Shown: one piece after another, positions 12,192 to 16,724 of the stretch | How positions within the stretch are numbered: the stretch's first letter is position 1 | How the letters are laid out: each line of letters begins with the position of its first letter | IMG/VR virus record: IMGVR_UViG_3300006734_000033 | Location: 1 to 27,487 of that record | Strand: one strand, 5' to 3' | DNA: 27,487 nucleotides | Origin: a virus | Translations under genes and position numbers: made by a program | The notes under the pieces: generated by a model | Told to the model about the DNA's origin: nothing | What the model saw: only the letters and a program-made list of their open reading frames with translations | The model's database searches: none

Positions 12192-12218
12192 ACTTTATTG
12201 GTTTTTAAATTATTAACT

Positions 12219-12239
12219 CAAAGGTACATATTTATGTAC
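12219..12239 (-). promoter_or_regulatory. Promoter-like TACCTTTG box overlapping a dyad
   Basis: On the minus strand GTACATAAATATGTAC (complement of 12224-12239) is a 7-bp inverted repeat with a 2-base centre. Its right arm runs into TACCTTTG (complement of 12219-12226), matching the Bacteroidota TAnnTTTG -7 box, 27 bases before the ATG of the 338-aa gene. Overlap of dyad and box would fit an operator, though no regulator is identified. Confidence 0.5.
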
Positions 12240-12260
12240 AATTATTGTTTATAGTTCTAA

Positions 12261-12280
12261 AGTCAGGTTAAAACCTGACT
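12261..12280 (-). terminator. 20-base palindrome / hairpin after the 107-aa gene
   Basis: AGTCAGGTT and AACCTGACT form a perfect nine-base-pair stem with a 2-base centre, 13 bases beyond the stop of the 107-aa gene. On the minus strand it is followed by TTAGAACT rather than a T run, so termination would be weak. A protein-binding palindrome or a processing hairpin is an alternative. Confidence 0.5.
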
Positions 12281-12293
12281 AAAGTTATATGAA

Positions 12294-12617
12294 TTAAAAT
12301 CTAATTTGCTTGTGCTCTCCGTTTACTCTGCAATTAATTATACCTGTAAAATTTTCAAAAACATCAGCACTAATTAACTCATAAGAATCTGATTCTTTTA
12401 ATTCAGGCTTTTTAGAGTCGTACAAAGATATTAGTTCATTAGATTTACTTGCATCTACTTCACTTGTTCTTTGAGATTTGATAGTTTCTATCAATGATTC
12501 TTTAGCTTGTCTATCTGAATCTTCTTTTGACATCAGTAGAGTTTTTTGTTCTTCTGTTAATTCTACTTGTTTAATTTCTGTCCAAACACCTTGTGTTGTT
12601 AATTGATATTGTTTCAT
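12294..12617 (-). CDS. Small hypothetical at the end of the surface cassette (107 aa)
   Basis: Function not recognised. It begins MKQYQLTTQGVWTEIKQVEL and ends with a beta-like tail (ENFTGIINCRVNGEHKQIRF), with a charged helical middle (residues 20-70; TEEQKTLLMSKEDSDRQAKE). Proteins with this opening and closing are common in phages of Bacteroidota, at the end of fibre or structural gene sets, and could be fibre-assembly helpers or capsid-bound minor proteins; I cannot decide. It lies 5 bases after the beta-solenoid gene, so the two are made together, and is followed by a palindromic hairpin. Confidence 0.78.
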   Translation of the reverse strand: MKQYQLTTQGVWTEIKQVELTEEQKTLLMSKEDSDRQAKESLIETIKSQRTSEVDASKSNELISLYDSKKPELKESDSYELISADVFENFTGIINCRVNGEHKQIRF

Positions 12618-12622
12618 GATTA

Positions 12623-13696
12623 TTATCCTTGATTATTTTCTACATTAGTTCCATCTAAACACATTCTTGTTTGACCTAAGCCTGACACGGTTTGAAAAGT
12701 TCCTGCTGTTTTTTTGCACCAATAAATCTTTCCGGTCAATGAGCCTGTTAGACCATTATTATTTCCAAAAGACTTGTTGCCTCCGACACAACTATAAAAA
12801 ACTCCACTACAAGTACCTCCTGTGCCGAACGTCTCATCTCCACCCTCACATTCATAAAACGTTCCGGAAGCCGTACCGCTATATGAGCCAAATGAATAAT
12901 CTCCGGCAATACAATTTCTAAAAACGCCCGATGCCACACCAAACCCATAAAACCAATCAATCCCAAAAGAATCTGTACCTGATTTACAATTTGTAAAGGT
13001 TCCGGACGCTTGTGCAGTACCCGCTCCTGCGTAAGCAAAACTAAAATCTCCCGCAATGCAATTAGTAAAAACCCCTGAAACTGTAACCACACGGGTTGGT
13101 GTACCATTTTGGCTTACCCCAAACGAATAATTACCCCCTGCACAATCTATAAAAGTTCCATTTACTGTAATATCGTCGTTAGATTTAAAACCAAAGGAAT
13201 AATCACCACCTTTGCAATTTTCAACTTTTAACAAGCTTTGATGACTTGCAACAGTAAACGGCTTGGTACCAACATCTACACCTTTTACGTATATATCATT
13301 TCCAGTTACCGCAATTGTACCTGCTGCATTTGCAGAATTAAAAATAATACTTCTATTTCCGTCTAAAGATACCAAATCAATATACTCAACTTCCATTGTA
13401 AAAGCCGTAGAACCAAAATTATAGTAACCAGGTGATGCTATAATAGTAATCCTGTTTGTTGGACTTGGAGACATTGTTTTAGCTGTGTCATATGCTGACT
13501 GAAGCTCTGCTGCATTTTCAGTGTCTGTTCCGTTAGCGTATACAAAAACATAACTTGTCCCTAATAACTCAGGAGGAGCAGGAGGAATAACAGAACTTAC
13601 AGCTTCAATAAAACTTTCATTTGTTATCAAGTCACTCCAAGTATTATTTAAATTTTGACCAATGTGGTTTGTTTCCCCTTTAAAATATGTTGCCAT
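12623..13696 (-). CDS. Cys-ladder beta-solenoid surface protein (357 aa)
   Basis: Residues 1-40 (MATYFKGETNHI, NESFIEAVSSVIPPAPPE) match the start of the 227-aa gene upstream in pattern and probably attach the protein to the particle. About 45-150 is a beta-rich segment with right-handed beta-helix character (AYDTAKTMSP, NRITIIASPGYYNFGSTAFT). From residue 161 the sequence CxxGxxSFG recurs at about 161, 185, 213, 237, 262, 283 and 303, with a degenerate copy at 327, each preceded by GxFxxC. Units are 20-28 residues, the spacing of a beta-solenoid coil with a Cys stacked in each turn. The product is likely a capsid or tail surface fibre/adhesin. It follows the glycosyltransferase by 23 bases. 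Overlapping frames on both strands are shadows. Confidence 0.85.
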   Translation of the reverse strand: MATYFKGETNHIGQNLNNTWSDLITNESFIEAVSSVIPPAPPELLGTSYVFVYANGTDTENAAELQSAYDTAKTMSPSPTNRITIIASPGYYNFGSTAFTMEVEYIDLVSLDGNRSIIFNSANAAGTIAVTGNDIYVKGVDVGTKPFTVASHQSLLKVENCKGGDYSFGFKSNDDITVNGTFIDCAGGNYSFGVSQNGTPTRVVTVSGVFTNCIAGDFSFAYAGAGTAQASGTFTNCKSGTDSFGIDWFYGFGVASGVFRNCIAGDYSFGSYSGTASGTFYECEGGDETFGTGGTCSGVFYSCVGGNKSFGNNNGLTGSLTGKIYWCKKTAGTFQTVSGLGQTRMCLDGTNVENNQG

Positions 13697-13719
13697 TTTA
13701 TTTATTATTTTATTGTTTA

Positions 13720-14352
13720 TTATATAGTTAAATCGTGTGATTGAAAAAATACACTTTCAGATGCTAACATTTCTTCTTTAGTAGATAATTCCCAATTATT
13801 CCATTTTTTATCTAGAAGTTCAATAGTTAAATCTATTTTAGATAATGCTATCATCAAAGCCCATTCATCATATTCATACTTTGATGTACCTTTATCAATA
13901 TCATATAACTTTTCTCTTTCAAGATATTCATATTGCCATTGATCACAAATCTTTTTAGCTATTTCAAGATTTTTAAAGTACATAAAACCACTATTAATTT
14001 TATGACCATGAAAATCAAAAGCATCTTGTCTAATTTTATCAGGCAAGTACCATTTACCTTGATATGGCACGTAAGCAAAATCCGTATCTTCTTTTACACT
14101 AAATGTTTCAAATGGATTTTCCATTAACGTAAACATATCTGCATCCATAAATATAACAGAACCATCTGCATTATCTATGTAATTAGCAAAATTACATTTG
14201 TGCCACAATCCATTAATTAAAGGATCACTGTTAACCTCAACGTAATTATCACTTGCTTTTGTAAACACTTCTATTGGAAGATCAACAGTACGCTTTAAAC
14301 GTAATGCTTCCTTCTCATATTGTTCTCCTATTGCTACTGAAAATAGTTTCAT
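13720..14352 (-). CDS. GT-A-type glycosyltransferase (210 aa)
   Basis: A nucleotide-sugar-dependent glycosyltransferase by fold. MKLFSVAIGEQYEKEALRLK is the opening strand-helix. GSVIFMDADMF (Asp70, Asp72) is the DxD metal/nucleotide motif after a hydrophobic strand. HKINSGFMYFKN (about 117-128), YEYDEWALMIAL (about 159-170, the acidic base region) and FFQSHD (about 202-207) are typical of glycogenin/LgtC-like GT-A enzymes. No signal peptide or membrane segment is seen, so it acts in the cytoplasm. It lies 1 base after the 227-aa gene and 23 bases before the beta-solenoid gene, within a set of probable surface proteins. Modification of these virion proteins is therefore the simplest idea; host cell-surface or phage DNA sugars are alternatives. 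It appears intact and full-length for a minimal GT-A domain. Confidence 0.85.
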   Translation of the reverse strand: MKLFSVAIGEQYEKEALRLKRTVDLPIEVFTKASDNYVEVNSDPLINGLWHKCNFANYIDNADGSVIFMDADMFTLMENPFETFSVKEDTDFAYVPYQGKWYLPDKIRQDAFDFHGHKINSGFMYFKNLEIAKKICDQWQYEYLEREKLYDIDKGTSKYEYDEWALMIALSKIDLTIELLDKKWNNWELSTKEEMLASESVFFQSHDLTI

Positions 14353-14353
14353 A

Positions 14354-15037
14354 TTATGTTACTACTATATAACCTTTATTTGTTGCTATTGTCGGATCAA
14401 TTCCCGTTTGGTCGCTAATAAGAGAAATGTTTAAAGTTGCTGTTTTAGTTGTTGTGGGCAAATCTGTAAAAAATTGATTTAAGACATTCCCACTATCTAA
14501 GGATATAGGGCCATTTATAAAAGCAAGTGCTTGTGTAGTACCAAGATCTTCTAAACCAGTCAACAGATGTGCATTTCTAAAAATACTAAAAGAAGCACCT
14601 GCAGCGCCTAATCTTAAACTTCTGAAAATAGTAGGATTACCGTAAGATAAGAAATCATAATCAGAGTAATCAGTAAAACGTACAACAGCAAAATAATTAT
14701 TAGTGCTGCTAGCAGTTGCTGACGTAACATAGTTTGGAGCATAACCTCCGGGAGTTTTATCTAAAGGAGCAGGAAACCCTACTCCTACCAATCCGGTCCA
14801 TCCGATACTATCAATTTCGGCCTGTGTCATATAAGACCACCTAAAATTTTTGTATATAAACTCTTGTCCTGCTTTACTTGCATCTGTAATTGGGTATTCG
14901 GTAAGAACTTCTACTGTGCCACCACCGCCAGTAGGAGTTATTGCTTGAACCGCTTCTGTAAATTGTTCATTATCAAATGCATCAATATTTGAAAATTCAT
15001 AACCTTTTTTACGAGGTCCTTTTTTATAAATAGCCAT
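14354..15037 (-). CDS. Probable head/surface appendage protein (227 aa)
   Basis: Function not recognised outright. Residues 1-40 are basic then mixed (MAIYKKGPRKKGYEFSNIDA; NEQFTEAVQAITPTGGGG) and match in pattern the start of the beta-solenoid gene downstream, including NE-F-EAV-I-P and a following flexible linker. After the Gly linker the chain is beta-rich with many Thr/Ser (VRFTDYSDYDFLSYGNPTIF, then FRSLRLGAAGASFSIFRNAH) and ends in a compact strand (NKGYIVVT). The Gly-rich hinge followed by a small beta domain resembles head fibres or decoration proteins. It follows the major capsid gene's terminator by 27 bases and precedes the glycosyltransferase by 1 base. It may be a glycosylation target; that is inference. 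Confidence 0.78.
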   Translation of the reverse strand: MAIYKKGPRKKGYEFSNIDAFDNEQFTEAVQAITPTGGGGTVEVLTEYPITDASKAGQEFIYKNFRWSYMTQAEIDSIGWTGLVGVGFPAPLDKTPGGYAPNYVTSATASSTNNYFAVVRFTDYSDYDFLSYGNPTIFRSLRLGAAGASFSIFRNAHLLTGLEDLGTTQALAFINGPISLDSGNVLNQFFTDLPTTTKTATLNISLISDQTGIDPTIATNKGYIVVT

Positions 15038-15056
15038 TTTATTTTTTTTTAAAATT

Positions 15057-15086
15057 AAAAAAAGGGGGGAGATTTTATTCTCCCCC
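15057..15086 (-). terminator. Strong Rho-independent terminator after the major capsid gene
   Basis: On the minus strand GGGGGAGA (complement of 15079-15086) pairs with TCTCCCCC (complement of 15065-15072), an eight-base-pair GC-rich stem around a six-base loop, followed by one more C and TTTTTTT. It starts 18 bases after the capsid stop and should keep capsid mRNA levels separate from the surface cassette. Confidence 0.95.
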
Positions 15087-15104
15087 GGTTAATAATAAGC
15101 TTAA

Positions 15105-16724
15105 TTAGAATGATCCTCCTGTTACAGGGTTTCTCATTACAATCTTAAGAACCTTAGTTGGGTCTTTTACCCAAACAGCAGGCATGGTCTGACTCATGTA
15201 TACACGATAACCATTGAAGTTACCAACAGAAGCAAAACCTTGACTACGGCCCATATAATCCATAGTACCATTCTGATAGAACCACTTAAGTTGATTATCC
15301 CACTTAAGTTTCAACAAATAGATGTTATCATTTCCGTTATCAGTAACATCAAAGATAATAAAGCTATAAGAACTCAAAGGACGTCCATCAATCAAAGGAT
15401 TCTCAATGTCGTTAGTGTGAAGGTTGTCAAAAGCAGGATTCAAGACAAACTTAACGTTAGCCAAGAAAGGAATGGTAAAGCTTGTGTAAGCAAAACCAAA
15501 ATCAAGATCCATACCTTTTCCGGTTACAGCACCAATATCAGATGCATTCTGAACCAAACCAGATCCGTATACTTCGTCAGCAATTGCTTTGTTAATCAAC
15601 TGCATACCACCAATACCGGTTTGTACTACAAGTCTACGCTGGGGATCTGGACCTTTAAATTCAACCTTACCTTGATAGAAGTTATAAAGTTCAGACTTGA
15701 ACATATCAAGGGTAAAAGAAGATTTGTTGTAAACACGCTTGAATGAGTTATCAAGCTGACTCCACAAACCTACAGACAATCTGATATCATCTGGTCCGTC
15801 TTGCTTGATTCTACCACCTTTACCCCACATCAGGTAAGTTTCAATGTCATTAGAAATCTTACTCAAGTGAGCTGCTTCCAAGTTAGTAATAAACGTGCGT
15901 GTCAATTGTCCACTTTCAAATGCTTGACGAGCACCTGATTTACCCATAGAAGCTACAAGCTCCTCAATAGAAGAAACTGAAGGATTGTTTACATCCTGGT
16001 TAAAGTTTCTCCAAATTTCAGTAACAGGAACAGTACCGTCAGCATTAAGACCGCCTTTGATCATCAAGTCAGCACGGCTAGAAATAGAATAGTGAACATG
16101 AGCTTCAGCACCACCCACAAAGTTGTAGAATTCACGGAAGCCAGAACCAGTCTCCATATCAGAAAATCTTTCTCCGTATTCTCCACGGGCAGAACCTTTG
16201 CGGAAGAACTTAGTTCCAGGAGTAAGATAAGTGTTATCAAGACTTGCGGCATTGTTGTTGTTCACCAACTGTACAGTGTAGATGAAACCATCACCAGCAG
16301 GGATAATATCAGCTGCAGTAATGTACAATTCCAAACCGTTGTACTTGTCATAGGTAATAATATCACCATGACCGAAAGCTCTCTTAGACAATTTAATAGT
16401 AAAAGTGGTACCATCAATACCTTTTTCAACGTTTCCTGGATCAAGATCCACAACAATGAAAGGAAGGTCTTGAGCAATAGGTGTTTGCCACTTGTACTCA
16501 CCACGAGCATTGTCTACCATAATGGTGTTTTTACCACCAAAAGAAGCCATTTGATAAAGGGGCATTTCAACCTTTTGAGTCATTGCCCACAAATCTACCG
16601 GACCCAAATCCATGGGTTCGGCACTACCCAACATTTGAGTCAGGTGATAAGAATCAACGTGAGAGCTTGCTTTATAATTAGTGTCTCTCAGGAAGATTCC
16701 GTTGTTTAAAACTGGAGTTGCCAT
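15105..16724 (-). CDS. Major capsid protein (539 aa)
   Basis: Placed as the HK97-fold major capsid protein because it directly follows portal and scaffold-like genes, has the right length (539 aa) for a large-genome phage capsid, and ends at a strong terminator. The start is MATPVLNNGIFLRDTNYKAS. Features that fit are a long N-terminal arm with helix (about 25-60), a beta-rich middle with GTTFTIKLSKRAFGHGDIIT and GARQAFESGQLTRTF, and DPQRRLVVQTGIGGMQLINK, which resembles the P-domain helix/strand region. No leader-peptide cleavage site is obvious. The ATG follows an A/T-rich leader (TTAAATTAAATT). It forms the icosahedral shell with the portal and scaffold proteins. Numerous frames on the opposite strand are shadows. 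I did not align it, so the domain borders are approximate. Confidence 0.88.
   Translation of the reverse strand: MATPVLNNGIFLRDTNYKASSHVDSYHLTQMLGSAEPMDLGPVDLWAMTQKVEMPLYQMASFGGKNTIMVDNARGEYKWQTPIAQDLPFIVVDLDPGNVEKGIDGTTFTIKLSKRAFGHGDIITYDKYNGLELYITAADIIPAGDGFIYTVQLVNNNNAASLDNTYLTPGTKFFRKGSARGEYGERFSDMETGSGFREFYNFVGGAEAHVHYSISSRADLMIKGGLNADGTVPVTEIWRNFNQDVNNPSVSSIEELVASMGKSGARQAFESGQLTRTFITNLEAAHLSKISNDIETYLMWGKGGRIKQDGPDDIRLSVGLWSQLDNSFKRVYNKSSFTLDMFKSELYNFYQGKVEFKGPDPQRRLVVQTGIGGMQLINKAIADEVYGSGLVQNASDIGAVTGKGMDLDFGFAYTSFTIPFLANVKFVLNPAFDNLHTNDIENPLIDGRPLSSYSFIIFDVTDNGNDNIYLLKLKWDNQLKWFYQNGTMDYMGRSQGFASVGNFNGYRVYMSQTMPAVWVKDPTKVLKIVMRNPVTGGSF

What the first reader, a model, noticed from the sequence alone, without database searches (positions are those of the whole stretch)
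13720..14352. Glycosyltransferase inside the virion-surface gene cassette
A GT-A enzyme with an intact FMDADMF motif lies 1 base after one probable surface protein gene and 23 bases before a beta-solenoid surface gene, just after the capsid terminator. The simplest reading is that the phage glycosylates its own capsid fibres, perhaps on the many Thr/Ser of the 227-aa protein or on the solenoid. Capsid glycosylation could mask the particle or mediate binding.
Basis: inference. Interest (0 to 1): 0.6.

Follow-up and report, generated by a model that had tools for sequence, protein, structure and literature searches.

The report
Phage surface protein with private glycosyltransferase
In this uncultured crAss-like phage, a sugar-attaching enzyme sits next to a chimeric capsid-surface protein, and the same pair (surface-protein body plus enzyme) recurs in unrelated phages joined to each phage's own anchor, so the phage most likely decorates its own particle with sugar using a movable two-gene kit.

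Summary
In detail: 13720-14352 (-) is an intact GT-A glycosyltransferase under purifying selection, 1 base after p227, 23 bases before a repeat-rich protein, behind the capsid terminator of a crAss-like phage fragment. Eighty relatives with 81-97% identical capsid protein lack it; 55 of 72 measurable ones have at most 450 bases at this site. The enzyme recurs in unrelated phages. A scan keyed on the enzyme alone gave 19 contigs: 18 have it just behind a gene ending in the p227 C-terminal domain; the exception is a truncated enzyme without that gene. p227 is a chimera: residues 1-36 match the capsid-proximal protein native to this lineage, 39-226 the enzyme-linked body. So a 'fibre body + glycosyltransferase' unit was grafted onto the local anchor, and the body is the likely acceptor. 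The solenoid is not the partner: its relatives lack the enzyme. Sister end-domains are followed by sulfotransferase-like genes instead. Virion glycosylation by phage enzymes is known (mycobacteriophages); the movable pair and its sulfotransferase counterpart appear undescribed in the literature held. Acceptor, sugar and benefit remain inferred.

The parts
13720..14352 (-). GT-A glycosyltransferase, 210 aa; D70-A-D72 metal motif, N120-S-G, invariant E160-Y-D-E163 and Q204-x-H206
   Evidence: Pfam PF03407 E 9.1e-9; invariant residues; model pLDDT 90.6; best fold match PBCV-1 A64R Z 15.7, tied with GT6 and LARGE1
14354..15037 (-). p227, chimeric surface (probable head-fibre) protein, the probable acceptor
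   Evidence: body homologous in all enzyme-linked loci; chimera shown by local alignment
14930..15037 (-). p227 residues 1-36: lineage-specific capsid anchor shared with the native gene after the capsid gene and with the 357-aa protein
   Evidence: z 13.3 with L022, 8.4-8.8 with L015/L016, 8.6 with the 357-aa protein; alignment ends at residue 36
14357..14581 (-). p227 C-terminal cap of about 75 aa (LRR-like), LPTTTKTAT loop, ATNKGY end motif
   Evidence: alignment A3; LPx[TAVS] motif in 15/15 enzyme-linked caps, 1/23 others; weak LRR fold matches Z about 5
15065..15086 (-). terminator-like hairpin after the major capsid gene
15105..16724 (-). crAss-type major capsid protein
   Evidence: PF23898 E 4e-31; phrog_11589
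12623..13696 (-). 357-aa repeat-rich surface protein with the same N-terminal anchor; a separate unit
   Evidence: anchor similarity; homologues L193-L198 without the enzyme or cap
12294..12617 (-). 107-aa protein that follows solenoid homologues elsewhere (partner of the solenoid, not of the enzyme)
   Evidence: 43% identity to the gene after the solenoid in L193, 34% to one near the solenoid in L196

Best explanation
13720-14352 is a phage-encoded GT-A glycosyltransferase dedicated to the surface protein encoded directly upstream of it (p227). The body of that protein and the enzyme form a two-gene unit that moves between unrelated phages and is joined each time to the recipient's own virion anchor. 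Here it sits on the anchor used by the gene after the major capsid gene of this crAss-like lineage, so p227 is most likely a head fibre. Late in infection the soluble enzyme would transfer a sugar from a host nucleotide-sugar to p227 (most likely O-linked, perhaps on the Thr-rich LPTTTKTAT loop of the LRR-like end), so that finished particles carry glycan on their surface. Shown: the gene, fold and motif, the near-constant linkage, the chimera, its absence from close relatives. Inferred: head-fibre location, acceptor site, sugar, and the benefit (altered binding or masking).
For: Enzyme-only scan: 19 contigs, 18 with a p227-type gene just upstream (one of these, L120, with a 2OG-Fe oxygenase-like gene between). 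p227 body found in all 14 contigs of the first enzyme scan, gaps 1-15 bases where measured. The single exception, L187, lacks the enzyme's first 40 or so residues and has no p227-type gene. p227 is a chimera: residues 1-36 align to the native gene after the capsid gene, 39-226 to the enzyme-linked body. In L004, L008, L011, L014 and L120 the fibre's N-terminus is likewise shared with another gene of the same locus. Carriers have different head genes: crAss capsid here, phrog_1328 in L014, portal phrog_213 in L148. No enzyme, sulfotransferase or cap in 1.35 Mb around 80 related capsid genes. Enzyme-linked caps form one clade with an LPx[TAVS] motif. Enzyme under purifying selection. Top fold matches include PBCV-1 A64R, deposited as a glycosyltransferase for capsid glycosylation. 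No membrane segment in enzyme or p227.
Against: No mass-spectrometry or biochemistry. The acceptor is inferred from linkage only. Distances of enzyme and cap correlate over all 15 pairs (r 0.59, 0 of 5000 permutations) but not significantly within the 10 close ones (r 0.22). All enzyme-linked caps form one clade, so the motif and linkage may reflect few independent events. p227 has no confident fold match, and no sequence match to the solved crAss001 head fibres. The fold match to A64R is tied with enzymes that act on glycans.
Confidence: 0.68

Rival explanations
1. The enzyme modifies a host surface glycan (capsule or LPS) to block superinfection or re-adsorption of progeny, and is linked to p227 because p227 binds that same receptor.
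For: This role was proposed for late-gene glycosyltransferases of gut phages (PMC8008677). Linkage of a receptor-binding protein and a receptor-modifying enzyme would look similar. The middle of p227 is hypervariable, as in receptor-binding proteins.
Against: No flippase or lipid-carrier transferase next to the enzyme in the window; no membrane segment. The enzyme tracks the conserved cap, not the variable middle. It is embedded in the late structural cluster. Sister caps carry sulfotransferase-like genes at the same position, and these and the enzyme can share a C-terminal domain that in isolates follows tail or structural genes.
Confidence: 0.15
2. The enzyme glycosylates another virion protein, such as the 357-aa repeat protein or the major capsid protein.
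For: They are adjacent in the window and the 357-aa protein is rich in Ser and Thr. Mycobacteriophages glycosylate capsid and tail tube (PMC12363180).
Against: Homologues of the 357-aa protein lack the enzyme; enzyme loci lack that protein and, within the fetched DNA, this capsid protein. Only the p227-type body is constant.
Confidence: 0.08
3. The protein has no needed transferase activity and acts as a folding or assembly helper for the fibre (chaperone-like).
For: Position directly after the fibre gene is where fibre-assembly proteins often lie; distant homologues carry an accessory domain found after tail or structural genes in isolates.
Against: The metal motif, NSG and Q-x-H residues are invariant in all 11 aligned homologues, which fits retained catalysis.
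Confidence: 0.06
4. DNA-glycosylating enzyme that happens to lie in the structural cluster.
For: Many phages use glycosyltransferases for DNA hypermodification (cited in PMC12619734).
Against: Near-constant linkage to a surface protein; fold matches are to retaining GT-A enzymes of protein and glycan acceptors.
Confidence: 0.03

Closest known systems
Virion glycosylation in mycobacteriophages Che8, Corndog and Myrna (Freeman et al. 2023, as cited in PMC12363180 and PMC12619734)
   Same: phage-encoded glycosyltransferases modify the phage's own structural proteins
   Different: there the acceptors are capsid and tail-tube subunits; here a fibre-like protein whose body travels together with its enzyme as a two-gene unit; sequence relation of the enzymes was not tested
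PBCV-1 A64R (PDB 2p72, 2p73, 2p6w)
   Same: similar size and GT-A fold, Z 15.7, rmsd 2.9 over 175 residues; virus-encoded; named for glycosylation of the major capsid protein
   Different: 10% identity; eukaryotic virus; may add a terminal sugar to a growing glycan (PMC4691112); the Z lead is within a tie
PhicrAss001 head fibres gp21 and gp29 (PMC10172136)
   Same: short N-terminal anchor binding the capsid hexon pocket with a variable outer domain; lineage-restricted
   Different: no detectable sequence similarity; location of p227 is inferred from shared N-termini
Pfam PF03407 Nucleotid_trans
   Same: profile match over residues 38-181
   Different: a broad family from all of life; the CAZy family was not tested
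phrog_3347 'Galactose-3-O-sulfotransferase'
   Same: matches the sulfotransferase-like proteins that replace the enzyme behind sister caps (E 2.5e-6)
   Different: filed as a moron in PHROGs; link to a cap-bearing surface protein not recorded in the library entry

Membership tests
PF03407 Nucleotid_trans glycosyltransferases | profile score above the curated cut-off | tested here: met
   36.0 bits against 22
GT-A glycosyltransferases | GT-A Rossmann-like fold with DxD motif | tested here: met
   confident model, Z 14-15.7 to many GT-A enzymes; D70-A-D72 invariant
GT-A glycosyltransferases | transfer of a sugar from a nucleotide-sugar | not testable with these tools
   needs an enzyme assay
Self-glycosylating phages (mycobacteriophage type) | glycan on purified virion proteins that depends on the phage enzyme | not testable with these tools
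   no virions; phage is uncultured
Crassvirales | crAss-type major capsid protein plus portal and terminase | tested here: met
   PF23898 E 4e-31; PHROG capsid, portal and terminase matches
crAss001 head fibres (gp21, gp29) | sequence homology to the solved N-terminal anchors | tested here: inconclusive
   no match at E up to 10; the paper says most crAss groups lack detectable homologues
crAss head fibre in general | N-terminal anchor shared among capsid-proximal surface genes of the lineage | tested here: met
   capsid binding itself was not tested
Serotype-converting gtr systems | membrane transferase with flippase and lipid-carrier transferase genes alongside | tested here: not met
   no hydrophobic segment in the enzyme (maximum mean hydropathy 0.93); neighbours are p227 and the 357-aa and 107-aa proteins
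Sulfotransferases (sister units) | Sulfotransfer profile match | tested here: inconclusive
   7 of 13 match PF03567, best E 5e-5; phrog_3347 E 2.5e-6; the individual scores printed lie under the Pfam cut-offs

The most novel reading that the evidence does not exclude
Phages share a family of movable surface-tailoring units: a surface protein ending in an LRR-like cap plus a private modifying enzyme just behind it, either a GT-A glycosyltransferase (once with a 2OG-Fe oxygenase-like gene) or a sulfotransferase. The unit is grafted onto each phage's own anchor, so that virions of very different phages are glycosylated or sulfated by interchangeable kits.
Probability: 0.45. Interest if true: 0.8.

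Novelty: new variant of a known kind. Interest (0 to 1): 0.62.

Why it matters
If true, virion glycosylation is a trait that phages can gain in one step by acquiring an acceptor domain with its enzyme, not a special case of mycobacteriophages, and it reaches crAss-like phages. It yields a clean two-gene test system (enzyme plus acceptor). It also predicts that cap type tells the modification (sugar or sulfate), and that particle surfaces of many uncultured phages are chemically modified, which bears on host binding, mucus binding and recognition of phage particles.

Tried and rejected
Isolate phage records: no tblastn match for the enzyme, a distant homologue, the cap, or the sulfotransferase; no megablast match for the window. 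Bacterial genomes: no enzyme homologue in the 84,980-species collection with the patterns used; one cap plus sulfotransferase unit in a Pirellulales MAG contig. PDB sequence search with the enzyme profile: nothing. p227 fold search: no significant Foldseek match; VIA-align rows are mostly LRR proteins at Z about 5, too weak to claim a fold. Solenoid as acceptor: rejected because of separate distribution. Coupled distances within the close set: not significant. Literature on phage sulfotransferases with tail fibres: nothing relevant held. The primary mycobacteriophage glycosylation paper is not held, so it is cited through two others. One apparent exception set (L139, L142, L143, L145 with no listed sulfotransferase ORF) proved to be sulfotransferase frames missed by ATG-only ORF calling.

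Full report
What is there. The window (27,487 bases, one virus record) is a crAss-like phage fragment: the major capsid gene 15105-16724 matches Crass_capsid PF23898 (E 4e-31), with portal and terminase matches. On the minus strand the order is capsid gene, terminator hairpin 15086-15065, p227 (14354-15037), the enzyme (13720-14352), a 357-aa repeat protein (12623-13696), a 107-aa protein and a conserved 338-aa gene.

The enzyme. It matches Pfam PF03407 above the curated cut-off. The AlphaFold model has mean pLDDT 90.6. Fold comparison gives GT-A enzymes throughout; the best Z (15.7, rmsd 2.9, 175 residues) is PBCV-1 A64R, whose PDB title names it for glycosylation of the virus's major capsid protein. 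GT6 BoGT6a (15.0) and LARGE1 (14.7) lie within or at the edge of the tie, so acceptor type cannot be read from the fold. D70-A-D72, N120-S-G122, Y161-D-E163 and Q204-x-H206 are invariant in 11 homologues. dN/dS is 0.09-0.24 for five pairs and 0.39 for one close pair.

The site. In 80 viral contigs with related capsid protein (81-97% identity), the enzyme, p227 body and 357-aa protein are absent; HMMs for enzyme, sulfotransferase and cap find nothing in 1.35 Mb around them. The distance from capsid gene to the 338-aa gene could be measured in 72: median 395 bases, 55 at most 450, and 2,913 here. Where a first gene was found it is mostly a short one of about 64-90 aa; 17 relatives have longer intervals, most with longer genes of various kinds, so this is a variable slot.

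p227 is a chimera. Residues 1-36 align to the N-terminus of the native gene after the capsid gene (L022 z 13.3, L015 and L016 z 8.4-8.8) and to the 357-aa protein (z 8.6). Residues 39-226 align to the enzyme-linked surface proteins of unrelated phages. In PhicrAss001 the head fibres bind the hexon pocket by residues 1-38 and 1-58 and carry different outer domains (PMC10172136), which fits the same plan, though no sequence similarity was found.

Linkage. The first enzyme scan gave 14 contigs, all with the p227 body just upstream; measured gaps were 1-15 bases. A second scan keyed on distant enzyme homologues gave 19 contigs, 18 with a cap-bearing gene just upstream (in L120 with a 2OG-Fe oxygenase-like gene on the other strand between). 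The exception L187 is an enzyme without its first 40 or so residues and without a cap gene. Several contigs are near-duplicates; with the window there are 15 distinct pairs. The carriers differ: crAss capsid here, head protein phrog_1328 in L014, portal phrog_213 in L148. In L004, L008, L011, L014 and L120 the N-terminus of the linked protein is shared with another gene of the same locus (z 5.5-29). So body plus enzyme is a portable unit attached to local anchors.

The wider family. A scan with the C-terminal cap gave 48 contigs. Behind the cap gene, 17 have the enzyme family and 22 a sulfotransferase-like gene; 2 more have a sulfotransferase behind a second cap gene; 7 have neither. The sulfotransferase assignment rests on weak profile matches (7 of 13 to PF03567, best 5e-5; phrog_3347 E 2.5e-6). 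Some members of both enzyme types end in the same accessory domain (phrog_6034); a similar domain in three isolate phages examined stands alone close behind tail or structural genes. Enzyme-linked caps form one clade and carry LPx[TAVS] in 15 of 15, against 1 of 23 others; because they form one clade this is not many independent events. This Thr-rich loop is my candidate acceptor region, by inference only.

The 357-aa protein is a separate unit: six homologues lie in contigs without enzyme or cap nearby, and in L193 and L196 a homologue of the 107-aa gene follows. In L196 a different putative glycosyltransferase (weak Anp1 match) lies between them.

Mechanism and confidence. Most likely the enzyme glycosylates p227, a head-fibre-like protein, before or during assembly (0.68). 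The main rival is modification of a host glycan against superinfection (0.15), as proposed for other gut phages (PMC8008677); absence of membrane-linked partners, linkage to the constant cap and the sulfotransferase counterpart speak against it. Nothing here shows a glycan.

Novelty. Phage glycosylation of virion proteins is established for mycobacteriophages (PMC12363180; PMC12619734). I found no description of a portable acceptor-plus-enzyme unit or its sulfotransferase counterpart in the searches of the held literature, and no isolate record carries it at the sensitivity used. I file it as a new variant of a known kind.

Noticed in passing
L121, L122, L147, L151, L154-L156, L159, L161-L171 (just after the cap gene): Sulfotransferase-like genes of 187-314 aa follow cap-bearing phage surface proteins at about -56 to +18 bases (ATG starts), suggesting virion sulfation.
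   Followed up: partly
L120:3291-4127 (-): A 2OG-Fe(II) oxygenase-like gene (PF13759 E 6.6e-10) lies between a cap gene and the glycosyltransferase homologue, which recalls hydroxylation followed by glycosylation.
   Followed up: no
L187:4001-4513: The only enzyme copy without a cap gene lacks its N-terminal part; it may be a remnant left after loss of the surface gene.
   Followed up: partly
L196:5912-6643: A different putative glycosyltransferase (Anp1/GT2-like, weak) starts at the stop of a solenoid homologue, a second fibre-plus-transferase pairing.
   Followed up: partly
L148, L150, L151, L159, L157:4074-4679: Glycosyltransferase and sulfotransferase homologues share a C-terminal accessory domain (phrog_6034); a similar domain stands alone behind tail or structural genes in isolates.
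   Followed up: partly
window 12192-15104 and the same site in L015-L094: The site after the crAss capsid gene is a variable slot: 17 of 72 relatives have longer intervals there (560-3,863 bases), most with longer, unrelated genes.
   Followed up: partly
L001:861-1481: A nucleotide-sugar epimerase-like gene (PF01370 E 1.7e-20, N-terminal part of the profile unmatched) lies just before the fibre-enzyme pair.
   Followed up: no
L009:5826-6842: A 338-aa protein that by eye recalls a hydroxyproline-type glycosyltransferase lies beside another surface gene; no Pfam or NCBIfam match.
   Followed up: no
window 14588-14752 (p227 residues about 96-150): The middle of the fibre body is hypervariable among phages while both ends of the body are conserved.
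   Followed up: no
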